A stretch of DNA of 47,015 nucleotides. It comes from a virus. The notes under the pieces are model-generated. The model was not told where the DNA came from, did no database searches, and worked only from the letters and a program-made list of their open reading frames with translations. Below are positions 34,710 to 46,425 of this stretch, in pieces; the first letter of the stretch is position 1, and the number at the start of each line of letters is the position of its first letter. A program made the translations under genes and the position numbers. Location: IMG/VR virus record IMGVR_UViG_3300044640_001092, positions 1 through 47,015 of that record, one strand, 5' to 3'.

Positions 34710-37700
34710 ATGGCTTGTAATATATTATATAATACTAGTATAACCGGAGATTGTGCTAATATTAACTCAGGGTCATTTACCATTAACATTAGTGGTACGG
34801 GTCCTTATTCCATTCAATGGGTGTCACCCTTCACCGGAACGACTTCTTTAGGTTTGAGTGCCACAACATATTCACGAACAAGTTTATCGGCAACAACTTA
34901 TACTTTTAACATTATTGATAGTTGTAGTCCTAATACAATAGTACCTGTAAATATTTATATTTCTAGCGGGACTAGTGTTTCTATAACAAATTTTAGTAAT
35001 ACAATATGTGGTGGAAATAATGGTTCTTTAACGGCATCGACAAGTAATATATATGGAACACCAACTTTTAGTTTATATAATAATACAGGGGGGTTTGTTT
35101 CTTCAGGTGCGTCATATACTAATACATTTGTATTCACTAGTTTATCCTCAGGAACTTACTATGTGATTGCTAATGATGGTGGTGGTTGTGTGGGGAAATC
35201 AGAGACGTGTATCATTAAAGAATCGAATCCAATTGATTATGATTTTTATATTGTGGATGATGCGGGTTGTAAAGTTAATTCAGGTAAAATGTTTATTTCA
35301 GGATTAACAGGAACGCCTCCTTACACTTATTTATGGTCAAATGGTAGTATTACAAATTCTATTTCAGATTTATCAACAGGTGTTTATAGTGTTACAGTTA
35401 CTGATAATACAGGTTGTAGCGTTAGTAAAAGTGGTTTTGTTGGTGAAGTAACGCCTGTTGGGTTTGGTGTTGAATATTTAAAACAACCAACGTGTTTTAG
35501 TGGTGACGGTGAGGTTACTATTGTTGTGACTGATGGTACTCCACCATTTTATTATTTAGGTTCAAATGGTGTTACAAATGTCACATTTGATAGGACTGTT
35601 ACTTTTAGTGGGTTAAGTGCCGGTCTTTTTACTATTCAAGTAACGGATGCGGGATTATGTAATTTTATATCCTCAGTTACTTTACAAGTTCCGATGGGAA
35701 TCTCGTCAGTTTCAGTTGAAACTAAAAATTCAAAATGTAATGATTTGACAGGTCAAATAGGTCCTATCCATGTTTTTGGTGGGGTTATACCTTATACTTA
35801 TACTTTAACGGATTTTGATGGTAATATAATAAGTCAAACATCTAATAGTGGTACTTGGACTTTTAATAATTTATCTTCAGGTACTTACTTATTAACTGTT
35901 TCTGATTCAGGTACTGAGTCTTGTGTATTTATGGATTCGTATACGGTTAATAATGATGTGTTATATGATTTAACCGTTACTACAACAGGAACTACTTGTG
36001 ATGGTAATGATGGGGTTGTAACGTTAGACATTACATCGGGAGGAACACCGCCTTACTTATATAAAATTGATGGTAAATCAATTAAAACTTCATTAACTTC
36101 TTATACTTTTAATAATTTAGTTTCGGGTAATTATGTTGCGAGTGTTACCGATGCGTTATATTGTTACCAATCAACACCATTTACTATAGATGAGTCGAAC
36201 ACTATAGATTTTCATTTATTAAGTCAAAATGCGATAAATGATGATGGGATTATAACTGCTTACATAACTAATGGAACACCACCATTTACGTTATATTTTA
36301 ATGGTGATACTGTTGGAACTACAGTTATGTCTATACCTGATTTACCTATTGGTGATTATTCGGTTAGGATAGTTGATAGTTCGGGATGTTCTAAAACAAA
36401 AAATAATAAAATCGGAGGGTATCGACAAAGAGGTTCTATTGGGTCTTACAATGTTTGTAGTGGTACGTTAGATAAAAGTATTGTTCTCAATTCTAACATT
36501 AGACAATTTTTTTATGAAGGGTATAATGAGTTAATATTGACAGAACCAACATATTCAAATTGTATTTTAACAGGGGCTACGTTTTCTGCGACAACAACTA
36601 TTGGTGATTGTGTTAAAACTGAATTATTTTATCATAGTACAACAATAACGGATTATCCATCTGATGAGGATTGGTTTTTAGTTATAACTTCATTAATTGA
36701 ATCCTGTCCTCAAATTGGTTCCGGTAATGTTTTAATTAATTCTTTAACTAATACTATTACTGTTACAACAAATTGTGATTTAGAATCTTTACATAATTCA
36801 AATGTTTTAGTTGAGTTAAGAATTCATTATGAGATTGCTTGTGTTTGTGCTTTACCAACACCAACACCAACAATGACACCAACTCATACTCCGACTCCAA
36901 CAATGACTCAAACGCCAGGAGCATCACCATCTGTGACGCCAACACATACTCCGACTCAAACACCGACACATACACCTACAATGACTCAAACTCCAACGAG
37001 TACAATGACTCCAACACCAACACCGACATCTAAAAAAACATATTATGCGTATGTTATATGTGATGCGAGACCAAATTTAACTACTTCAGTGATTCAACCA
37101 ATACCGGCAATAGTTGGTAATATGGTTAATGATGTTATTTTAGATTTAAATAATAATATTTGTTGGAGATTAGTTGAAATTAGTGATAATGAGAATCATT
37201 TAATTAGTACTTATGGTGGAACTACCTATACTAATAATTATTTTACAAATGTTTATGGTGAAATATTCTCAAGTCAGAACACTAAAAATCCTTGTGACGA
37301 TTGTAAAGAAGTTATAAAATCATTACCAGTCCCGGTTAAAAGTGATTGTCCAACAAACTTAAGAAATTGGAGTGATTGTCCTAAAGCTGATGTTATAGGT
37401 ATTATTTATGTTAATGATACAATAATTTATTCATTTGATTATGACTTTGATGTTAGTTTATATTTAGATACTTTACCAACAAATAATGGTGATTATGTTA
37501 ATATAGTTTTAACAACATCAAGTAGTGATACTATTGTTACGTTAAATGTTTCATATAATGATGGTGTAACATATTCTCAAACAAGTAATACAGTAATTAA
37601 TTTTGGTTATTTTGTTAAATGTGATGCAAAATCACAACCTGATTCTATTGATATTTTCTCAACGTGTGAACGTGTTCCACCATCAATAATATTATATAGT

Positions 37701-38123
37701 ACAACATATAGTGAGGGTGGTTTTATTCCTACCCCAGCATATTCATATACATCAAATAATTCACCACAAATGGTGTGGATGTTAAATAATTTTAATGGAA
37801 TAACGGTAACTAGTTTTGAAATACTTTGTGAAGATATTGATATTGTTGGTAGTAGTCCTGATGGATATTCTGTTCTATGGCATGTTACAAATATTGACCC
37901 TACACAATTCAATATTGCGAGTAACGGTACTTGGATTGGTGATGCAATACTTAACTTTACTGATGGTGACCCAACTAGTTTTAATGGTTGGAACGGTCCT
38001 AGTGTAACGGGTGGTTTTGTAAATCATTATAGAATACAAATAACAGCTAATTTATCTAGTGGTGGTTCCGTAAGTAGTAATTACTCAACATTTAGAGCTA
38101 CTTGTACGACACCATACTGTTAA
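34710..38123 (+). CDS. SprB-repeat adhesin-like tail fibre protein with Thr-Pro linker
   Basis: A 1137-residue protein. Residues ~85-570 hold about six SprB-type units of ~80 residues. Each has a GTPPYxYxW or GTPPFxY turn and ends in a strand like [13 protein letters not shown]. In Flavobacterium johnsoniae such repeats build the gliding adhesin SprB. Residues ~716-774 are a Thr-Pro-rich linker (bases 36855-37032) with a GASPS island. After it come ~360 residues of unrelated beta-type sequence ending CTTPYC, probably the receptor-binding or tip part. There is no signal peptide or sorting tail, so it is not a host-type secreted adhesin but a virion protein. It is the last + strand gene before a bidirectional terminator. 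Receptor binding is inference from domains and position. Confidence 0.75.
34970..36420 (+). repeat. Tandem SprB-type domain repeats
   Basis: About six protein-level repeats of ~75-85 residues, recognisable from [52 protein letters not shown] and [12 protein letters not shown], each followed some 25-35 residues later by an SGxYxxxVTDxxxC strand. DNA identity between units is low, so they are old or diversified. Confidence 0.7.
36855..37032 (+). repeat. Thr-Pro linker tract in the 1137-aa gene
   Basis: Imperfect six-base ACNCCN-type repeat encoding alternating Thr-Pro with Met, His, Gln and a GASPS island. Segments ccgacacatacacc (36963-36976) and ggagcatcacca (36918-36929) recur in inverted orientation in the 503-aa gene at 45170-45183 and 45205-45216. 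Confidence 0.8.
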
Positions 38124-38130
38124 TAAATAA

Positions 38131-38156
38131 AAAACCCCTCCGTTAAGAGGGGTTTT
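38131..38156. terminator. Bidirectional terminator between convergent operons
   Basis: Perfect 10-bp stem AAAACCCCTC/GAGGGGTTTT with loop CGTTAA (38141-38146). The A-run on one side and T-run on the other let it work in both directions. It separates the 1137-aa gene (+) from the RuvC-like gene (-), whose stop begins 4 bases later. Confidence 0.92.
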
Positions 38157-38159
38157 AAA

Positions 38160-38759
38160 TTACCATATGTTTTCTTGTCTCATGTGACCTAAGACACAAC
38201 AATAAGCATCTGTTTGGTCGAAGTTCTCTTTTTTGAGTGTATTGTTTCTTGTGTATTGCCAAGTAATTTGTGGTTCTTTTTTTGCAATTAAGTCCCATAT
38301 AATTTGTTTCTTATCAATATCTTTTGGGAGACCGCCGAATAGTACAAATTTACCTTGATTGTTTTCTTTAACTAATTCAGGGAAGGCAAACTTACGAGAG
38401 TTATATGTTGATATGAAGTCAGGGACTATCCCTAAAACATCATATATCTCTTTTGTGACTAATGTGTTAAAACGTAATAATGTTTGAACGGTATAGACGT
38501 TATTTGAGTTTAATAGAGGTTCTTCAATAATTACTTTAGTGATACCCATATCTTTATATTCTAAAAGTTTAGCTCTAAAGATTTCACCTTTAAGAAGTAA
38601 TTCTTTTATTTTATTATCTTCCTTAGGTTTAGGTGTTGGTGATACGTGAGTTAATTCCAATAATTCTTTACTTTCTATGTCGAATAATGCGACACCTATA
38701 GTTTTTGTTGAGACATCTAAGCCAAGTACTTTAGGGCTTTCTTTTAATGTTTTTTTCAT
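38160..38759 (-). CDS. RuvC-like Holliday junction resolvase / RNase H-fold nuclease
   Basis: A 199-residue protein. The RNase H-fold core has the acidic residues expected for RuvC: Asp15 in VLGLDVSTKTIGVALFD, Glu79 or Glu80 in VIIEEPLL, and the C-terminal pair Asp181/Asp184 in FDQTDAYCCVLGHM. E. coli RuvC is 173 aa. A phage enzyme of this kind would cut branched DNA before packaging, the job of endonuclease VII in T4, or resolve recombination intermediates made by the UvsX-like protein. It is the last gene of a - strand operon otherwise made of fibre genes, 3 bases after the 806-aa gene, and runs into the bidirectional terminator. Family call good; substrate inferred. Confidence 0.85.
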   Translation of the reverse strand: MKKTLKESPKVLGLDVSTKTIGVALFDIESKELLELTHVSPTPKPKEDNKIKELLLKGEIFRAKLLEYKDMGITKVIIEEPLLNSNNVYTVQTLLRFNTLVTKEIYDVLGIVPDFISTYNSRKFAFPELVKENNQGKFVLFGGLPKDIDKKQIIWDLIAKKEPQITWQYTRNNTLKKENFDQTDAYCCVLGHMRQENIW

Positions 38760-38762
38760 ATA

Positions 38763-41183
38763 TTAAAAATCAAATTTTACTAAAAACTGTTGAATTCCTT
38801 GTCTAAGGACAGGAGATTGTAGCTTTGATACAATCATAAGATTCATTTGGTCATCGTAAAGACCAATTTCTGAAATATATGGTGTAACACCTTGAGACCA
38901 ACTTGGGTTGGATGAGTGTTGAAACTCGGCTTGGCCAAGATTTATTTTATATCTCATTTCATAGATGGTTGCTTGTATGTCAGTTTCTAAGGAACCGTAA
39001 AAATAATATTCGTCACCAAAATTAAGAGTTTGTCCTGTTTGTCCTATTGATGGTAATGAAATGAAATTGTTTAAATTATATTTGTTAGTTTCTGATGTGT
39101 CATATAAAGTTTTAGTGATAACGAATGTATTACCGGTAAGACCTGATTGAGTAATATAACTATTTACGGTTGTCGCACTTAATTGATTTGTAAAATTAAT
39201 TAATCTCCATTTATTTGAGTCAGGTCTATCACCATTTTCAACAATTTGGCAGATTATTTGAAATTTGTTTGCAACATAACCATTAACTAGTGAATTATTT
39301 GTTATTTGTTTTAAACAATTAAATCCACCACCAAAAGTGATTGCAACATCTTGTTGTCCTGCAACACCACAATTAACATTTGGTCCTAATATTGTTGAGT
39401 AATAATTACAATGTAATGAATTTGTTGCTCCTGATGATGAGTTTGTTAATAAATAACTAACATACATCGTTTGGTTAGTTCCTGATAGTACCCCTAAACC
39501 AGAAGAATCATTAACTACAGTACAACTATTTGGTGTTATTAGAGATGTTGTGGCTGATGGTAAAGTCCAGTTACGATTTGATTTATAAGATAATGCGGCG
39601 ATTAATTCCTCATCATCGATTACGATTATTTTTTGGTCGGGAAACACTTTACCAACTCTGTTAGGTTGTCCATTAACACTATTTGGGTGAGTGTCCCATA
39701 ACATATAATAACGAATACCTGGTGTATTCATATCTGTGTTTTTAGTGGATTTGATATAGTGAGTTTTAAACACATTGATTGGTACCTCGTCTTCAGGTGG
39801 GAAAACATAGAATGTTTCACCGTGACAGCACTCAGGGTTTTTATGCCACATTAACCAAGGTAAGTGTAATTTAAAATTTCTTGCGTCTCCTGTTACATCT
39901 TCAGCATTTGTTCCGGTAATCGGTTGCTCGAGTGCAAATTTTTCACCATAGAAAAAATCAATCGTGTTATTTGTATAATGAATGATAGCTATTGATTTTT
40001 GTTCTTCCGGAGTAACAACAATTTTTTTATTAAATGAATTATAATAATAAACAGAATCTTCAACATTCATATCTTTATCAACAAATGTTTGACCGCTACT
40101 TGACATATATCCTAAGTATTCTTTAGTACCAATATATGATTTAGAATTAAAATGTGTGTAATCTTGAGATATTGTTGGAATTAATCCTGCGGGGTTTTCA
40201 GACCAAGGAATGTTCATATTCCAAACTTTAACATCAAATTGGTCTGTATCACAAATAGATTCAAAATTAATCACATCAGTGTTCCAATGTTGGGTTGGTG
40301 TTATACTATCGTATAATGAAGTCATATTAGGTGGATACACTAATGTTCTAACATAAGTACAAGCGGACGTTATGTAAGTGTAGTTAGGTGTTACTCTATC
40401 TAAAGTTATTACATTTAAACAAATATCAACAATTTTATATGTTAAGATATTGTGACAACTATTAACATTTACAAAGGTGTTAATAACAGGTGTTGGAGTA
40501 CAACCTGTTGGGGTTGTTAGACAACAAGTTGATGATGGTGTTGGTGTTGGGTATGGTGGCATACAAGCATCATATGATGGTGTAACCGTTGGTGTTGGTG
40601 TGGGTGTTGGTGATGAAGGTATGTTAGTTCCACAATAACTAGTATTACCATCAAAATAAATTGTGATTAAATCTCCTTTTGATGGTAATCTAACAATATT
40701 GGTGTTACAACCTGAATAAATTATTTTGATTTGTGTTCCACCGGTGAATGTTGAAATATCGACAACATAGTTAGAATTGATAACGTAATTAGTGTTAGTG
40801 TTTGCACTCCAACTTGAAGGTGGTGATGTTGTATCTCCACTAAAAAAACCTCTAATTGATGCTCTATTATATATTGGAGAAACCGCAGGGTCTGAGAATG
40901 GGATACCATAAGTACTATTGTTATTTTGATTAACATAAATAGGGTATTTAACATTCTGTTTATTAGTTTGACCTTGAGCAGAATTTTGTGAATTAAAATT
41001 CGGTTCTAATATATTATTATAAGATTGATTGTAAGGGGTACCACTTAAGGTGTTGTAAGAAATTTCACTATCTCCAATTTGAAAATAGGAGATGTTAAAA
41101 TTACCTTCAGATAGTTTTTGTCTAGCTGTGTCGGTTAATCTTGTGTTAATTAGTGCTGATGTGTTTTTAACTATATATGCCAT
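38763..41183 (-). CDS. Tail fibre/collar-type structural protein with Thr-Pro linkers (806 aa)
   Basis: It starts MAYIVKNTSALINTRLTDTARQKLSEG followed by FQIGDSEISYN, an N-terminal module I associate with virion attachment in this type of phage. Two short Thr-Pro linkers lie at ~190-225 (PSSPTPTPTPTVTPSYD, PPYPTPTPSST) in a Cys-rich surrounding. A long beta-type middle follows. The last ~60 residues (VTPYISEIGLYDDQMNLMIVSKLQSPVLRQG) resemble the EIGLYD turn of P2 gpH/T4 gp12-like collar and fibre proteins, unusually at the C-terminus. It is preceded 4 bases upstream by a TATTTATA element and 27 bases upstream by the 643-aa gene. A fibre or adaptor role is inferred. Confidence 0.65.
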   Translation of the reverse strand: MAYIVKNTSALINTRLTDTARQKLSEGNFNISYFQIGDSEISYNTLSGTPYNQSYNNILEPNFNSQNSAQGQTNKQNVKYPIYVNQNNNSTYGIPFSDPAVSPIYNRASIRGFFSGDTTSPPSSWSANTNTNYVINSNYVVDISTFTGGTQIKIIYSGCNTNIVRLPSKGDLITIYFDGNTSYCGTNIPSSPTPTPTPTVTPSYDACMPPYPTPTPSSTCCLTTPTGCTPTPVINTFVNVNSCHNILTYKIVDICLNVITLDRVTPNYTYITSACTYVRTLVYPPNMTSLYDSITPTQHWNTDVINFESICDTDQFDVKVWNMNIPWSENPAGLIPTISQDYTHFNSKSYIGTKEYLGYMSSSGQTFVDKDMNVEDSVYYYNSFNKKIVVTPEEQKSIAIIHYTNNTIDFFYGEKFALEQPITGTNAEDVTGDARNFKLHLPWLMWHKNPECCHGETFYVFPPEDEVPINVFKTHYIKSTKNTDMNTPGIRYYMLWDTHPNSVNGQPNRVGKVFPDQKIIVIDDEELIAALSYKSNRNWTLPSATTSLITPNSCTVVNDSSGLGVLSGTNQTMYVSYLLTNSSSGATNSLHCNYYSTILGPNVNCGVAGQQDVAITFGGGFNCLKQITNNSLVNGYVANKFQIICQIVENGDRPDSNKWRLINFTNQLSATTVNSYITQSGLTGNTFVITKTLYDTSETNKYNLNNFISLPSIGQTGQTLNFGDEYYFYGSLETDIQATIYEMRYKINLGQAEFQHSSNPSWSQGVTPYISEIGLYDDQMNLMIVSKLQSPVLRQGIQQFLVKFDF
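40533..40612 (-). repeat. Thr-Pro linkers in the 806-aa gene
   Basis: Two short GGTGTTGGTGTT-type tracts on the + strand (coding Thr-Pro on -), flanking a DACMPPYP island. They are similar in composition to tracts in the 503- and 1137-aa genes. Confidence 0.7.
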
Positions 41184-41187
41184 ACTG

Positions 41188-41196
41188 TATAAATAT
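41188..41196 (-). promoter_or_regulatory. TATTTATA element upstream of the 806-aa gene
   Basis: On the - strand ATATTTATA ends 4 bases before the ATG at 41183, in the 27-base gap after the 643-aa gene. It has the same orientation relative to its gene as the + strand copies. Confidence 0.4.
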
Positions 41197-41210
41197 TCTG
41201 TGTTTTATTA

Positions 41211-43142
41211 TTAGTTAATTTTTATTGAGCAACAATCGCATCCACTAATAACAGGATTACTAATTGAGTAGTTATCGGTGCAATATCCAACAACACATTC
41301 ACCTAATGTAGTTTTATCAACTCTTGATGTTGTATTGATTGTTATAGTATCATTATTTGAAATTGTTAATGAACTCCAAACATCATCAATGTTTGATTGA
41401 TAAACATATTCTTTTTGACAGTTAGTGATTGTATTAATCGATTGTGTGTTACCTGTTACTGTACTGTTAATTGATATTGGTGTGATGTTTTTAGTTAATA
41501 CAGTTCCGGTTGTTAATATTGATGTTCCACTTGTTGGGGATGAATAAAAACTATTGTTATGTATAATATCAAATGTGATGGTTGTACCATCAGGTAATGA
41601 TGGATTTACATCGACGATTGTTTCGTAAGTATTAACTAATGATATATTATTATTAACGGGTGTAGTATTAATCGTTTTAAGTGATATACTATATGTTGTG
41701 GATTGTTGTTGTTTATCTAATGTTACTGAACTTGAATAAGATTCTAATAATGAATCAACAACCAATAATGAATAAATTCCACTACAAAGGTTGGTAAATA
41801 TTGGGGATGATGAATACGTCACACCATTATCGATTGAGTAATTGAATGGAGGGTTATCTAATGTTACATTAAATATAATACTACCATCACATAAACAAGT
41901 TGGTTGATTAACACTTACTGGTGGTAATTGTTTTCTTACATTACCACAACTACCTTCATTTGTTGTTATTGATTGTAATGGAAAACCTCCGGTTCCAAAC
42001 CAGTTTGTTGGGTATGTTATTGAAGAAGTTAGTTGTGTATTTGAAAACATTATATTACCATAAATTGTTGAGGATAATAACCATCTGGTACCGTCCCAAT
42101 TAATGGTTGAATTTGGGTTAAGTTCATTTTCGTCTATCCAAGTTGGTTTATTATTAGAATCTAATCCATTATAAATAAAATGGGTGTCACTTACAGATAT
42201 ACCCCCTTTTTTAGGTGCTGATACTGATAAACAAAAATCAGGATATAAACTTACTGTTGGAACAATTAATGTAACTGTGTTATTTAGACAATGTTCGTTA
42301 TAGATATAGAAAACACCTAAATTAACTGGTGTTGTATTTGGTACTTTGACGATAATACCTAATTGTAAAGTTGTTCTTGGTATGTTTTGTGCCAATACTC
42401 CGGATGGGTATAATATTGGTATATCGGCAGGTCCTGGAGGTGCACTATTGTAATAAATTGTGTATGGACCATCTGATGTTGATTCCATAGTTAAACTTAT
42501 AGTATAATAATAATGTGTGTTGTCTATTGGTGTTGGTGTGTAATTACTAATAGTTCCACTGAATGAACAGTCTCGTTCTGTATGAATATTACAAACTGTT
42601 ATTGCAGTATAGTCGTGCCAGTAATCAACGGTTGTTGCCGTATAATAACCATTACCAAGACCATCAATTGCTGGTGATACATTACCAGTATTCCACCAAG
42701 TAGTTTCATATGGGGGAGTTCCTCCTGATATTAGAAGAGATACTTGACCATCATAACTGTCGTATGATGTAGGGTTAGATACCACACAATCAACAACCAT
42801 TGGTAATATTGTAATAATCCCACATTCATTTTTATAACCAATAATTGTTGGGGGTGTTATAATTGGTGGTGTGTAACAAGGGTATGTATTAAAACATTTC
42901 TCACAATCGCTCTCCCATTGAAGACCTATTGGTGTTGTGTTATATATTTGATAATTACCGACAGATGATAATGAACTACCACTATAAGTAACACATCCCT
43001 TAAAAGTTTCGATAGATAGTGGATATGTTTTACCTTCAGGATAGGAAAACCAAGAAGACCAATCATCGGTGGTACCTGAGGTAATTCCAAAAGGTTCGAC
43101 CCCACCACAACATCCGCTAAAATAATGTATAATACTACCCAT
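41211..43142 (-). CDS. Fibre/adhesin-like protein with SprB-type repeats (643 aa)
   Basis: The N-terminus is short and Cys-rich (YFSGCCGGVEPFG). Two SprB-like units are visible: at ~125-185 (SYDGQVSLLISGGTPPYETTWWNTG to GNGYYTATTVDY) and at ~405-470 (CLCDGSIIFNVTLDNPPFNYSIDNG to SGIYSLLVVDS). Between them lies a beta-type region with WDGTRWLLSSTIYGNI. The C-terminus ends GCDCCSIKIN. It has no signal peptide. It is the first gene of a - strand operon with the 806-aa gene and the RuvC-like gene. A TTATTTATA element lies about 18 bases upstream of its ATG. It is likely a receptor-binding or decoration protein. Confidence 0.65.
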   Translation of the reverse strand: MGSIIHYFSGCCGGVEPFGITSGTTDDWSSWFSYPEGKTYPLSIETFKGCVTYSGSSLSSVGNYQIYNTTPIGLQWESDCEKCFNTYPCYTPPIITPPTIIGYKNECGIITILPMVVDCVVSNPTSYDSYDGQVSLLISGGTPPYETTWWNTGNVSPAIDGLGNGYYTATTVDYWHDYTAITVCNIHTERDCSFSGTISNYTPTPIDNTHYYYTISLTMESTSDGPYTIYYNSAPPGPADIPILYPSGVLAQNIPRTTLQLGIIVKVPNTTPVNLGVFYIYNEHCLNNTVTLIVPTVSLYPDFCLSVSAPKKGGISVSDTHFIYNGLDSNNKPTWIDENELNPNSTINWDGTRWLLSSTIYGNIMFSNTQLTSSITYPTNWFGTGGFPLQSITTNEGSCGNVRKQLPPVSVNQPTCLCDGSIIFNVTLDNPPFNYSIDNGVTYSSSPIFTNLCSGIYSLLVVDSLLESYSSSVTLDKQQQSTTYSISLKTINTTPVNNNISLVNTYETIVDVNPSLPDGTTITFDIIHNNSFYSSPTSGTSILTTGTVLTKNITPISINSTVTGNTQSINTITNCQKEYVYQSNIDDVWSSLTISNNDTITINTTSRVDKTTLGECVVGYCTDNYSISNPVISGCDCCSIKIN

Positions 43143-43159
43143 TTTTATTAATTGTTTTA

Positions 43160-43169
43160 TTATAAATAA
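43160..43169 (-). promoter_or_regulatory. TATTTATA element upstream of the 643-aa gene
   Basis: On the - strand TTATTTATAA lies 17 bases before the ATG at 43142. It faces another copy at 43232-43240 on the + strand, so the 102-base gap would be a divergent promoter region. Confidence 0.4.
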
Positions 43170-43231
43170 TCTAAAGTTTGATTTTATTAAAATATAATTG
43201 ACATTTACTTTTAATAAATGGTGTGGTTGGT

Positions 43232-43240
43232 GATATTTAT
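43232..43240 (+). promoter_or_regulatory. TATTTAT element upstream of the short + strand gene
   Basis: GATATTTAT ends 4 bases before the ATG at 43245, the same spacing seen for the 806-aa gene. This spacing is one reason to prefer ATG 43245 over the upstream ATG 43218. Confidence 0.4.
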
Positions 43241-43244
43241 TAGT

Positions 43245-43415
43245 ATGAAACTTATTAGTACCATATCCAATATTGTTACGGAAGCTAAAGAACTATATGA
43301 TTTGGCTTGTGATAAAGGAGTTCCTGAAAAAGAATTGGAACGACTTGAAAAAAATTATTACGAATCCTTAAAACTTCTAAGGATATATGAAAACTTGGGT
43401 AAGAATCCTAAATAA
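43245..43415 (+). CDS. Short helical hypothetical protein (56 aa) between fibre operons
   Basis: The sequence MKLISTISNIVTEAKELYDL is followed by a charged helix PEKELERLEKNYYESLKLLRIYENLG, probably a two-helix coiled coil. An alternative start at 43218 would add nine hydrophobic residues (MVWLVIFIS) and make a membrane anchor. I prefer 43245 because the TATTTAT element would otherwise lie inside the coding region. The gene is alone on its strand, and its last 8 bases overlap the end of the convergent 416-aa gene. It has coding-like codon use and a sensible amphipathic pattern. Function unknown. Confidence 0.5.
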   Translation: MKLISTISNIVTEAKELYDLACDKGVPEKELERLEKNYYESLKLLRIYENLGKNPK

Positions 43416-44658
43416 CACCACCATCAGTTATATTCCACCCATAACCACCGGAAATTACTGGATTGGTTAGGATATCTCTACCGGATTGGCTGGATGATGT
43501 GTATTGTGCATCACCAAACTTTATATTAAGTGATAGTTGAAGTGATGGTAATGAACTCCACCCATTATATATAGAGTCTAGATTATTTGAAGAAAACGTT
43601 GATGGGGTTTTATCTTCCATGAATGAAGTAAAATCATTAACCATTGATACATTCCAGTTTCCAATGTTTTGGTCAAATAATGAAAATATAAACATGGCAA
43701 CCATTGTTGTGACATTTGACACATTCCAACCGGATAATGGTTGGTTAAATAGTGAATTTTGAAACATTTGATTCATTTCGGTAACGTTCGAAACATCCCA
43801 CGAATTAATATCTTGGTCGAATACCGTTCCCGCAAACATATCATTCATGTTAGTAACGCCTGAAACATTCCAATTACCGATAGGACTGTTAAACATTGAA
43901 TTTGAAAACATACTATTCATTTGAGTAACGTTCGATACATCCCATGAACTTATATCGTCATTAAATCCTGAACCATCAAACATCCCATACATGGTGGTAA
44001 TATTACTAACATCCCAATTATTAATAAACGGTATTGTTGTTAATGAAACACATGACGCAAATGTATCTTCTAAATTATATATTCCGGATAAATTAAGTGT
44101 GTCTGTAACATTTGTTAATGATAAATCGTAACAATTGTAAAAATTACTACCACTATTACCTAATTGAAGACAACCCCACTGTAATATTTCAATAATATTT
44201 ACAGAATAGGGTGAAGACATAAACGACCACCCATTTATAATTCCTTTGATGGTTATTGTATAGGTTCCAGCTACATCGTAAGTGTGGGAACTATTTGAAT
44301 ATGAGTTAGATGAAAAAGTGCCGTCACCCCAATCTATTATTCCATCGTATGTTCCATCTAACTCATAAGGTAATGTAATACTCTCAAATGAACTTGTTGT
44401 TCTCCAAACAGAGATAAATGCTGGTGATAACATATTACAATCAATAATCTTAAATCTTTCACAACCATCGGATGTTATTATTTTAATACCGACAGCGGGT
44501 GCCATGTCAAATGGGAATGGTAATAATATTTCGTTTATTGGTGGTACAGATGTTGTGATGGTTGATATTAAAACACAATCATTACCATAGACATTACACA
44601 CATATATATTATATGGGTATGTTAATCCTGTTATTGTATTTAATGTTATTGATGTCAT
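43408..44658 (-). CDS. Fibre/adhesin protein with PKD-like segment and DUF285 (BspA-type) repeats, 416 aa
   Basis: Three parts are clear. Residues 1-75 form a module (ITLNTITG, PYNIYVCNVYGNDCVLISTI) that is repeated as a separate small protein at 46175-46396. Residues ~95-150 are PKD-like (YDGIIDWGDGTFSS, HTYDVAGTYTITIKG). Residues 215-345 are DUF285/BspA-type leucine-rich-like repeats with an exact 24-residue period, with Trp at 215, 239, 263, 287, 311 and 335, each WDVSNVTxMxxMF. The C-terminus (AQYTSSSQSGRDILTN, GYGWNITDGGV) is the usual ending of DUF285 surface proteins. These domains are typical of Bacteroidota and mycoplasma cell-surface proteins, so horizontal gain is likely. It is 3 bases after the 503-aa gene, in one operon. 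Confidence 0.8.
   Translation of the reverse strand: MTSITLNTITGLTYPYNIYVCNVYGNDCVLISTITTSVPPINEILLPFPFDMAPAVGIKIITSDGCERFKIIDCNMLSPAFISVWRTTSSFESITLPYELDGTYDGIIDWGDGTFSSNSYSNSSHTYDVAGTYTITIKGIINGWSFMSSPYSVNIIEILQWGCLQLGNSGSNFYNCYDLSLTNVTDTLNLSGIYNLEDTFASCVSLTTIPFINNWDVSNITTMYGMFDGSGFNDDISSWDVSNVTQMNSMFSNSMFNSPIGNWNVSGVTNMNDMFAGTVFDQDINSWDVSNVTEMNQMFQNSLFNQPLSGWNVSNVTTMVAMFIFSLFDQNIGNWNVSMVNDFTSFMEDKTPSTFSSNNLDSIYNGWSSLPSLQLSLNIKFGDAQYTSSSQSGRDILTNPVISGGYGWNITDGGVI
43618..44016 (-). repeat. 72-bp (24-residue) DUF285 repeats
   Basis: Five full units and a partial sixth, with Trp codons spaced exactly 72 bases apart. Each encodes WDVSN[VI]TxMxxMFxxxxFxxxIxx. The protein repeat is strong, while the DNA has diverged. 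Confidence 0.85.
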
Positions 44659-44661
44659 AAA

Positions 44662-46173
44662 TTAAGGACAGTATAACCAATTAGTACCATTAATGTGTAT
44701 GTTAAAATAAAGTGGTGAATTATCGGTTATTGTTATTGTTGCTGGATTAGTCGGACCACAGTACCCCGTGTATGTTGCGTTAACAGCTTGTCCTGGTACA
44801 ACGGTACCTTGACCAATACCGAATGTGATTGAGTTTCTAACATATGTGGCTCCTTGTTCTGTGATATAAAAATTATAAGTTTCTCCCGAACATAATGAAT
44901 TAATAAAGTGTGGTGTTATCACTGAAGATGTTGTGTAATGTCCAAATAATGGTGTTCCAAATAATGATGAACCACCTAAAGTACTATAACAACTAATAGG
45001 TTCTGATGATTTTTTAAAATAAATGTAAATACCATATCCTGCTGGTGGAATAACGTTTATGTCTTTAGTTAAATAAGCATAAACTGATGGTAATTGATTA
45101 GGGAACGATGGGTTACATAAAGAACAATTAAGTTGTGTTGTACTTGGAGTCATCGTCATAGTCATTGTTGGTGTATGTGTCGGAGTTTGTGTTGGTGTGT
45201 GACTTGGTGATGCTCCCGGTGTTCCGGTCGGTGTGTGTGTTGGAGTTCTAGTCATTGTTGGTGTTTGGGTAGGTGTTGAAGTATGTGTTGGTGTTGGGGT
45301 TGGAACAATTGCTGATTGGCAATATATACAAGCACCGTCTTCATATGAAAAACCGTAAGGACCAGTAGTTATGTTAATTGTGTTAATATTTCCGTGGTCA
45401 TAATCCATACCAAGGTAAGATATACATCTTGTTTCGGTCACACCGTTGTTATTAACAGTTGCCCCTAAAACAATATATAAATCAAATTCAAATCCTGTTG
45501 GGGTTCCGGTTACATCAGTACAATAGTAAAAATCGCCATTATAACAATCTTGAAACTTCAATACTCCCGGACAAATAATTTGACCTGTGATTGCGGAATA
45601 ACTACCAAATCCATCAATCAAACAATTTCTAGATATTAATGGTGAGTTAAAAGGTAATTTAGACCATATATTGTTTTCGTCATACATAGTTGGTGTTACT
45701 GTTGGTGTTGGTGTTGGTGTCGGAGTATATGTGTAACCACTAGCATCAATACCGATTATTGAACAATAGTTTGTTGAACTTGGTGTAACCGTAGGTGTTG
45801 GAGTTACGCTAGCACTTGGTGTCGGAGTTGGTGTTGGGATAAATTCACAATCAAAGATTGCTGTAAAATCTAAAACATCACAATTTTGAGTTGGTGTTGG
45901 TGTAGGTGTTAAACATATACCACTAAAGACATAGGATGTTGATAAGTCGGGACAGATACTTGTGGATGGATACTTACCACTTAAATAACAAGTACCTCCA
46001 AGAATATTAGATAAACACCATTCACTAGTTGTCCCCGTTGTATGATATATAGTCCAACCACTGGTTTGACCCGTCCAATATGTGTAACCATTATAGGTAC
46101 CACCTGTTATGTAGTTATCGTCGGCACCTACTATTCCGGTATTATTTACACAATATGTTGAATTACAAGCCAT
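44662..46173 (-). CDS. Fibre/adhesin protein with multiple Thr-Pro linkers (503 aa)
   Basis: A modular protein. A ~95-residue N-terminal domain (MACNSTYCVNNTG, YTYWTGQTSGWTIYHTTG, SYVFSGIC) is followed by short Cys-containing segments separated by Thr-Pro linkers at ~89-97, ~112-130 and ~148-162. A ~120-residue domain follows (SPLISRNCLIDGFGSYSAITG to GACIYCQSA). Then comes the longest linker (~291-345), with the GASPS island shared with the 1137-aa protein. The C-terminal domain of ~150 residues ends INGTNWLYCP. The opening MACN-(S/I) is also the opening of the 1137-aa protein. It has no signal peptide. The linkers would act as stiff extended spacers between domains. It is the middle gene of a three-gene - strand operon. 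Confidence 0.65.
   Translation of the reverse strand: MACNSTYCVNNTGIVGADDNYITGGTYNGYTYWTGQTSGWTIYHTTGTTSEWCLSNILGGTCYLSGKYPSTSICPDLSTSYVFSGICLTPTPTPTQNCDVLDFTAIFDCEFIPTPTPTPSASVTPTPTVTPSSTNYCSIIGIDASGYTYTPTPTPTPTVTPTMYDENNIWSKLPFNSPLISRNCLIDGFGSYSAITGQIICPGVLKFQDCYNGDFYYCTDVTGTPTGFEFDLYIVLGATVNNNGVTETRCISYLGMDYDHGNINTINITTGPYGFSYEDGACIYCQSAIVPTPTPTHTSTPTQTPTMTRTPTHTPTGTPGASPSHTPTQTPTHTPTMTMTMTPSTTQLNCSLCNPSFPNQLPSVYAYLTKDINVIPPAGYGIYIYFKKSSEPISCYSTLGGSSLFGTPLFGHYTTSSVITPHFINSLCSGETYNFYITEQGATYVRNSITFGIGQGTVVPGQAVNATYTGYCGPTNPATITITDNSPLYFNIHINGTNWLYCP
45141..45303 (-). repeat. Long Thr-Pro linker in the 503-aa gene, inverted relative to 36855-37032
   Basis: Coding strand Thr-Pro tract with [20 protein letters not shown], against [20 protein letters not shown] in the 1137-aa protein. 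At DNA level 45160-45183 (read on -) matches 36963-36986 in 23 of 24 bases. Confidence 0.8.
45687..45912 (-). repeat. Three shorter Thr-Pro linkers in the 503-aa gene
   Basis: Tracts near 45687-45735, 45783-45843 and 45888-45912 encode TPTPTPTPTVTPT, PTPTPTPSASVTPTPTVTPS and TPTPTPTQ. They are separated by short Cys-containing islands. Confidence 0.75.
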
Positions 46174-46174
46174 A

Positions 46175-46396
46175 TTAGATTACTATATTTGAGATTGAGG
46201 TACAACCATTATTATCAACAACTTTTAAATTAAATGATATCTGACCTTCCATAATTGAAGGAACCTGAAAATCGTAAGGTAACGATGATGATGGTATTGT
46301 GTTAATATATACACAAGTAACATTTAATGAATCACATAGATAAACATTAAAGGGTGTTGCTCCGGATATATTATTGATATTAATATTTGTTGGCAT
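46175..46396 (-). CDS. Small stand-alone module paralogous to the N-terminus of the 416-aa fibre protein
   Basis: The open frame reaches an ATG at 46417 (80 aa), but I prefer ATG 46396 (73 aa). From there MPTNININNISGATPFNVYLCDSLNVTCVYINTI lines up with the start of the 416-aa protein, MTSITLNTITGLTYPYNIYVCNVYGNDCVLISTI. With this start, the TATATTTAT element at 46416-46425 also lies upstream instead of overlapping the start codon. The protein ends NNGCTSISNIVI, matching SDGCERFKIID. It would be a single beta-type domain of the virion, or a decoration subunit. It is the first gene of the three-gene operon, 1 base before the 503-aa gene. Confidence 0.7.
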   Translation of the reverse strand: MPTNININNISGATPFNVYLCDSLNVTCVYINTIPSSSLPYDFQVPSIMEGQISFNLKVVDNNGCTSISNIVI

Positions 46397-46415
46397 TTGG
46401 TTAAAAGTTATTATC

Positions 46416-46425
46416 ATAAATATAG
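46416..46425 (-). promoter_or_regulatory. TATTTAT element upstream of the 73-aa gene
   Basis: On the - strand CTATATTTAT ends 19 bases before the preferred ATG at 46396. It would start the 73-, 503- and 416-aa operon, divergent from the primase promoter. Confidence 0.4.

What the first reader, a model, noticed from the sequence alone, without database searches (positions are those of the whole stretch)
36855..45303. Near-identical Thr-Pro tracts in inverted orientation could swap fibre tips
The linker in the + strand 1137-aa gene and that in the - strand 503-aa gene share 23 of 24 bases (36963-36986 against 45160-45183 read on -) plus a 12-base GASPS-coding match (36918-36929 against 45205-45216), in the same order. 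Homologous recombination between these inverted tracts would flip about 8.3 kb and exchange the C-terminal domains of two receptor-binding-type proteins while keeping both frames if the crossover is in register. This would be a low-cost host-range switch built from linker repeats, with no site-specific invertase needed.
Basis: partly seen in the sequence, partly recalled or inferred. Interest (0 to 1): 0.7.

Follow-up and report, generated by a model that had tools for sequence, protein, structure and literature searches.

The report
Phage fibre tips swapped at Thr-Pro linkers
In a family of uncultured phages, two surface-type proteins keep their stems but often change their tips at a Thr-Pro linker, and the block of genes between them has turned around several times in evolution; in this particular phage there is no sign of a live switch.

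Summary
The two matches exist, in frame in both genes. Given the peptides encoded, 23/24 is near chance: 5.8-10.8% of synonymous-codon simulations reach it. Three other contigs of this phage (99.98% identical over 12.6 kb) are colinear, so no flip is seen here. Relatives give the idea partial support. Among 173 related loci (none contained in another) the cassette between the two genes lies as in the window in 54, is inverted in 114, and was not called in 5. Trees need 7-9 orientation changes, 5-7 forced by supported branches where that was computed. One inversion separates phages 94-97% identical, but none of 126 groups of near-identical loci mixes orientations. Between close relatives the scaffold stays and the tip is often unrelated, with similarity usually stopping in the linker and resuming near the stop codon. 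Seven of 14 multi-member tip families occur on both genes. No PF00239 or PF00589 recombinase was found in 20 related records. Most likely the linker is a tolerant junction for slow tip exchange and the cassette an occasional inverter. Whether inversion itself swaps tips is not shown.

The parts
34710..38123 (+). Gene A, 1137 aa: conserved scaffold with SprB-type repeats (residues 1-714), Thr-Pro tract (about 716-773), tip (about 779-1137)
   Evidence: SprB, PF13573, E 3.2e-12; scaffold found in relatives
36855..37028 (+). Thr-Pro tract of gene A
36918..36929 (+). 12-base match in the GASPS-coding stretch, A copy
36963..36986 (+). 24-base stretch matching B at 23 of 24, A copy
   Evidence: null
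37044..38120 (+). Tip of A as aligned and folded (359 aa); strand-rich model, mean pLDDT 74, no fold assigned
38131..38156 (-). Terminator-like hairpin between the 3' ends of A and the cassette; 11 pairs
   Evidence: pattern match only
38160..38759 (-). P6, 199 aa, weak match to RuvC-like Holliday junction resolvases
   Evidence: phrog_159, E 8.9e-6
38763..41183 (-). P3, 806 aa, conserved cassette protein used to find relatives; no fold assigned
41211..43142 (-). P4, 643 aa, cassette gene; part of it found in both orientations
43408..44658 (-). P5, 416 aa, DUF285 (BspA-like) repeats; the same domain is an A tip or a B tip in some relatives
44662..46173 (-). Gene B, 503 aa: several Thr-Pro tracts and a C-terminal tip (about residues 347-503)
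   Evidence: residues 289-484 (tract and tip) match phrog_15511, unknown function, a family that also matches 17 of 54 P3 proteins, so the match may be partly compositional
45148..45306 (-). Main Thr-Pro tract of gene B (residues 290-342)
45160..45183 (-). 24-base stretch matching A, B copy
45205..45216 (-). 12-base match in the GASPS-coding stretch, B copy
45679..45837 (-). Earlier Thr-Pro tract of gene B (residues 113-165); holds the longest exact match to A (19 nt)
46175..46417 (-). P8, 80 aa, gene before B; in relatives it usually lies near B on the same strand

Best explanation
A and B are phage surface-type proteins made of a conserved N-terminal scaffold, a Thr-Pro linker and an interchangeable tip; adhesive tail-fibre-type proteins are the likely identity (inferred). 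Shown by comparison: between close relatives the scaffold and the DNA after the stop codon stay alike while the tip is often unrelated, and the change-over mostly lies in the linker and near the stop codon; tip families are shared between A-type and B-type genes; the gene cassette between A and B has been inverted several times over the history of this phage family. Inferred: repetitive linker DNA lets ordinary phage recombination (the window encodes UvsX-like, SSB-like and weakly RuvC-like proteins) join non-identical partners in frame, so tips move between phages and between the two genes. Now and then a cross-over between the facing genes inverts the cassette, which is tolerated because both flanking genes run inwards. 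In this phage it is a capacity on an evolutionary time scale, not an active switch.
For: Orientation: of 173 loci, 54 window-like, 114 inverted, 5 not called; where both flanks were found (window included) they agree in 119 of 122. Changes on FastTree trees: P3, 141 rows, 8 (5 forced by starred branches); P3, 170 rows, 9 (7 forced) and P7, 137 rows, 7 (7 forced); P3+P7, 116 representatives, 8 (6 forced). Recent inversion: about 5.7 kb inverted in L058 against L057 and L059 at 94-97% nt identity; at the A end of L058 an A-like tract joins a remnant of the tip type that B carries in L059. Tip swaps: among same-orientation pairs with P3 at 85-99.5% and tract and tip present, 31 of 64 for A and 14 of 83 for B have an unalignable tip between aligned flanks; scaffold similarity ends in the tract in 28 of 31 and 13 of 14 and resumes -41 to +72 nt from the stop. 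Tip families: 171 tips, 32 single-linkage families, 14 with two or more members, 7 of those on both genes; for example L028 A tip and L061 B tip, 49% over 237 aa. Tips include LRR_4, DUF285 and Fib_succ_major domains in 4 of the 10 proteins scanned. No PF00239 or PF00589 match in 20 records; controls rang in 10 and 14 of 14 genomes. Recombination proteins in the window.
Against: The 45 swap pairs come from few lineages (by my count 4 for A, 3 for B, 5 in all), so they are not independent, and alignment ends in low-complexity tracts are imprecise. 78 of 152 A-type genes have no tract in the linker position: 66 in inverted loci, 9 in window orientation, 3 not called, so the inverted state persists without it. 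DNA evidence that the two facing tracts of one genome recombine is weak: the longest exact A/B runs among 119 genomes, 45 nt in L006 and 44 nt in L020, are reached in 10 and 98 of 20,000 codon shuffles (0 of 300 each), which is borderline for L006 and unremarkable for L020 after picking the best of 119. The own B tract is the best match of an A tract in 4 of 34 genomes, 1.0 expected. The only close pairs of opposite orientation rest on one contig, L058, whose A gene is truncated and whose contig ends at the other junction. A and B tips are shared within one orientation too, so sharing need not come from inversion. Receptor binding rests on domain types and gene context; both folds were uninformative.
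Confidence: 0.55

Rival explanations
1. One reading: homologous recombination between the two tracts of this phage flips 8.3 kb often enough to act as a host-range switch that exchanges both C-terminal domains.
For: Geometry and reading frames allow it; the predicted products would be 924 and 716 aa. Inverted cassettes exist in relatives. L058 joins an A-like tract to a remnant of a B-type tip.
Against: The longest exact repeat is 15 nt in the named tracts and 19 nt anywhere between the genes, no better than codon-shuffled tracts (P 0.14). Three of three other contigs of the phage have the same orientation. Orientation is clade-bound, 9 changes against 43.7 for shuffled labels, and none of 126 groups of near-identical loci mixes orientations.
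Confidence: 0.1
2. Cassette inversion and tip exchange are separate. Tips are replaced by exchange between phages, and the cassette is turned by rare illegitimate events between the two facing genes, unrelated to the linkers.
For: Tips are shared within one orientation as well as across. 66 of 97 A-type genes in inverted loci lack a tract in the linker position. Relatives exchange whole flanks: L010 and L011 have P3 at 98% and P6 at 96% but A scaffold at 68%. Exact A/B runs are mostly what codon shuffles give.
Against: All inversions lie between the same two flanking genes, though exact ends were mapped only in L058, where the A-side junction lies in coding DNA, tract to tip remnant, not between genes. 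L020 A and B tracts are 90% identical over 145 nt, which the shuffles with fixed peptides do not fully judge.
Confidence: 0.28
3. A site-specific invertase not covered by the families searched turns the cassette.
For: The same flanking genes bound each inversion; only two recombinase families were tested.
Against: No PF00239 or PF00589 match in 20 records of 22 to 322 kb, several of them fragments. At the L058 ends the alignments to L057 overlap by 10 nt at one end, and those to L059 do not overlap; no systematic motif search was made.
Confidence: 0.04
4. The two orientations are assembly errors at the repeats.
For: Thr-Pro tracts are repetitive and the relatives are IMG/VR contigs, probably mostly from metagenome assemblies; L058 is a single short contig.
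Against: Orientation follows the trees, and both flanks agree in 119 of 122. The L058 tract is mostly A-like up to a junction that is not itself a repeat.
Confidence: 0.03

Closest known systems
Campylobacter group II phages CP220, CPt10 and CP21 (PMC4546147)
   Same: Phage modules that differ in arrangement, one inverted, separated by repeat regions whose unit numbers vary; the authors think inversion by recombination between repeat regions conceivable; subgroups differ in host specificity and tail fibre proteins (abstract and one section read)
   Different: Those repeats are mostly 72-86 bp units in repeat regions between four large modules; here the repeats are coding linkers inside two facing genes, with a cassette of roughly 6 to 14 kb between them
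Invertible fibre segments of phages Mu and P1 (recalled), and the e14 P segment turned by PinQ (PMC12529663)
   Same: Inversion makes chimeric fibre-type genes (PinQ: abstract and outline seen; constant part outside and variable part inside in Mu and P1: recalled)
   Different: They use a serine recombinase; none was found here in 20 records, and orientation here is stable within clades
Modular exchange of fibre tips in T4-like phages (recalled)
   Same: Conserved stem, variable tip, change-over at short conserved or repetitive motifs
   Different: Here the motif is a Thr-Pro linker found in two facing genes with an invertible cassette between them

Membership tests
Site-specific invertible fibre segment (Mu, P1, e14 type) | Segment found in both orientations | tested here: met
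   54 and 114 of 173 loci, across relatives and not within this phage
Site-specific invertible fibre segment (Mu, P1, e14 type) | Serine or tyrosine recombinase encoded in the genome | tested here: not met
   0 of 20 records for PF00239 and for PF00589; several records are fragments, and a helper encoded elsewhere is not excluded
Site-specific invertible fibre segment (Mu, P1, e14 type) | Short conserved crossover sites in inverted orientation | not tested
   Only the tracts and the L058 ends were inspected; no motif search was run
Site-specific invertible fibre segment (Mu, P1, e14 type) | Both orientations within one phage population | tested here: inconclusive
   4 of 4 contigs of this phage in one orientation; 0 of 126 near-identical groups mixed; L058 against L057 and L059 differ at 94-97% identity; no reads were available
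Diversity-generating retroelement | Reverse transcriptase gene | tested here: not met
   0 of 19 records for PF00078; several are fragments
Repeat-bounded module rearrangement (Campylobacter CP220 type) | Inverted repeats at both ends of the rearranged block | tested here: inconclusive
   Thr-Pro tracts on both sides in the window, but 78 of 152 A-type genes lack a tract in the linker position
Modular fibre tip exchange | Conserved scaffold and unrelated tips between close relatives | tested here: met
   31 of 64 A pairs and 14 of 83 B pairs, from about 5 lineages
Modular fibre tip exchange | Proteins are virion fibres that bind the host | not testable with these tools
   Inferred from domain types and gene context only

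The most novel reading that the evidence does not exclude
A diversification device without a dedicated recombinase: two facing adhesin genes copy tips and linkers from each other, the copies then serve as inverted repeats, and general recombination turns the cassette so that scaffolds trade tips and the core genes change operon. L058 (the same tip type at both cassette ends, one copy truncated) and the L020 tracts (90% identical over 145 nt) would be snapshots of successive stages.
Probability: 0.15. Interest if true: 0.8.

Novelty: new variant of a known kind. Interest (0 to 1): 0.55.

Why it matters
It offers a natural series, 173 loci in two orientations, in which one can ask how phages change adhesive tips without a known invertase or retroelement, and whether coding repeats are kept partly because they make such joins safe. 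The phages are well represented in IMG/VR (454 related stretches in one scan), while neither P3 nor P7 had a match in 50,697 phage records.

Tried and rejected
An apparent second close pair of opposite orientation (L234 and L235, P3 identical) was an error: a gene resembling P8 had been used to orient L235. The two are colinear over 9,568 nt. Orientation was then called from P7, A and B only, with a position check. Not called: L235 and L326 (no flank found) and L199-L201 (B in an odd position).

Whether tips ride with the cassette was tested (blastp E 0.01; 41 A tips in window orientation): 25 of 41 match a B tip of an inverted locus, 6 of 41 an A tip of an inverted locus, but 21 of 41 also match a B tip in window orientation. 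That leans towards the idea and does not settle it; the target sets differ in size (64 B and 44 A tips in inverted loci, 22 B tips in window orientation) and the tips are not independent.

Exchange between the A and B tracts of one genome first looked strong (L006 and L020, 0 of 300 shuffles each). With 20,000 shuffles the runs are reached 10 and 98 times, and they were the best two of 119 genomes, so this is now held as weak. For that reason I lowered the best explanation from 0.60 to 0.55 and the novel case from 0.18 to 0.15, and raised the separate-events rival from 0.25 to 0.28. The own B tract is best in 4 of 34 genomes, 1.0 expected.

The fold of the A tip (mean pLDDT 74) gave 19 matches at E 0.001 or better, to multi-domain strand-rich proteins; the 50 matches listed had TM-scores of at most 0.28 and high rmsd, so no fold is claimed. 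P3 (mean pLDDT 61) gave no match at E 0.001. The P3 profile matched one solved structure, E 2.2e-6 over positions 158-245, a stretch that includes Thr-Pro repeats; I set it aside as probably compositional. A Hint-like tip in L103 was suspected by eye but Pfam gave no match, so it is not claimed.

Paper searches: (lists capped). None of the listed titles described this system. The library holds only open-licence papers, so this is weak evidence of novelty.
Full report
What was checked. A is 34710-38123 on the + strand, B is 44662-46173 on the - strand; both have a Thr-Pro tract before a C-terminal domain. The match is not a special DNA site. With the peptides fixed and codons drawn from the phage's own usage, 5.8% of 1000 simulations reach 23 of 24; with codons shuffled within the tracts, 10.8% do. 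The local score of A against B equals the mean of 20 shuffles. B's earlier tract holds a longer exact match to A, 19 nt.

Where the window comes from. It is a linear IMG/VR record of 47,015 bases. It encodes UvsX-like, SSB-like, DnaB-like, ribonucleotide reductase and baseplate wedge proteins. The best-scoring named matches of the reductase are Cellulophaga and Tenacibaculum phages at 38.6-40.4% identity, and A carries SprB repeats, so a Bacteroidota host is likely (inference). P3 and P7 have no match in 50,697 phage records.

This phage itself. L004, L005 and L015, from three other records, match 12,600 nt of the region at 99.98% with no break. All four contigs have one orientation. In the first P3 tree the 19-row starred clade that holds the window (22 rows at support 89) is in that orientation throughout.

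Relatives. Eight scans with P3 proteins, each capped at its best 80, gave 323 loci, 173 after contained copies were removed. These are not all independent: with the window they form 126 groups of near-identical loci, 43 in window orientation, 80 inverted, 2 not called, and 1 holding inverted and uncalled loci; none mixes the two orientations. I oriented each locus by P3 and asked on which side and strand P7 or A, and B, lie. The window arrangement is found in 54 loci. The inverted cassette, with A and B still facing each other, is found in 114. Five were not called: L199-L201 (B in an odd position), L235 and L326. Where both flanks were found, window included, they agree in 119 of 122. So a block holding at least P4, P3 and P6 lies in either direction between the same two genes.

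How often it turned. On the first P3 tree (141 rows) 8 changes are needed, 5 forced by starred branches. With 170 rows it is 9, 7 forced; on the P7 tree (137 rows) 7, 7 forced; shuffled labels need about 44 and 40. On a P3+P7 tree of 116 representatives it is 8, 6 forced. These are FastTree trees, and recombination between phages can add apparent changes. Inversion recurs, but orientation is stable within clades.

A recent case. L058 is 94-97% identical to L057 and L059, yet about 5.7 kb holding P4, P3 and P6 is inverted relative to A. At the A end of L058 a Thr-Pro tract runs out of frame into the last part of a tip of the type that B carries in L059. The last 150 and 300 nt of that tract score higher against the A genes than the B genes (cut off in L057) of L057, L059 and L060; at 90 nt L059 slightly favours B. 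At the other end a whole copy of the same tip type adjoins the P4 side and the contig stops. The A-side junction thus lies in coding DNA, but L058 has a truncated A and is one short contig, so it is a lead and not proof.

Tips. In same-orientation pairs with P3 at 85-99.5% nt identity and both tract and tip present, the tip is unalignable between aligned flanks in 31 of 64 pairs for A and 14 of 83 for B. Scaffold similarity ends inside the tract in 28 of 31 and 13 of 14, and resumes -41 to +72 nt from the stop. By my count these pairs come from 4 lineages for A and 3 for B, 5 in all. Among 171 tips from the 140 loci held at that time and the window, single-linkage clustering gave 32 families, 14 with two or more members, 7 of those containing both A and B tips. 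Examples are L028 A and L061 B (49% over 237 aa) and L065 A and L021 B (33% over 480 aa). DUF285 repeats are an A tip in L065, a B tip in L021, and a separate gene (P5) in the window. Other tips carry LRR_4 (L084 A) or Fib_succ_major (L136 A).

Exchange between facing tracts. The longest exact A/B runs among 119 genomes are 45 nt in L006 and 44 nt in L020. Codon shuffles reach them in 10 and 98 of 20,000 trials; after picking the best of 119 this is borderline for L006 and unremarkable for L020. In L020, 145 nt are 90% identical and the peptide is shared; the shuffles hold the peptide fixed and so do not judge that. The window's 19 nt run is reached in 14% of 300 shuffles. Over 34 representative genomes the own B tract is the best match in 4, against 1.0 expected. 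Such exchange may happen but is not established.

Machinery. No PF00239 or PF00589 match was found in 20 related records of 22 to 322 kb, with control genomes ringing, and no PF00078 match in 19. A terminator-like hairpin separates A from the cassette. P6, inside the cassette, has a weak RuvC-like match. General phage recombination is the simplest agent; this is inference.

Verdict. The specific claim of a ready switch in this phage is not supported. Against the linkers as sole cause stands that 78 of 152 A-type genes have no tract in that position, 66 of them among the 97 inverted loci examined. Precedents are repeat-bounded module inversion in Campylobacter phages (PMC4546147; abstract and one section read) and invertase-driven fibre segments (PinQ, PMC12529663, abstract and outline seen; Mu and P1 recalled).

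Noticed in passing
window 43408-44658 (-): P5 consists largely of DUF285 (BspA-like) repeats directly after B; in some relatives the same domain is fused as an A or B tip, as if a tip gene had been freed or captured.
   Followed up: partly
window 34710-36851 (+): The A scaffold carries SprB repeats, known from gliding adhesins of Bacteroidota (recalled), so the phage may share or mimic host surface adhesin modules.
   Followed up: no
window 38160-38759 (-): A RuvC-like protein is encoded inside the cassette and is at least 69% identical in the 79 of the first 80 relatives that hold it.
   Followed up: no
L010 and L011: Two loci share P3 at 98% and P6 at 96%, but the A scaffold is only 68% and P7 78% identical: a recombination boundary between cassette and A.
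   Followed up: partly
L199, L200, L201: A third arrangement: B lies beyond P6 but on the same strand as P3.
   Followed up: no
Thr-Pro tracts of A and B genes, 169 loci and the window: A TPxxSP motif (GASPS in the window) recurs in 77 of 285 tracts of 26 residues or more, near-copies included.
   Followed up: no
L006 and L020: A and B tracts of one genome share exact runs of 45 and 44 nt; L020 is 90% identical over 145 nt.
   Followed up: partly
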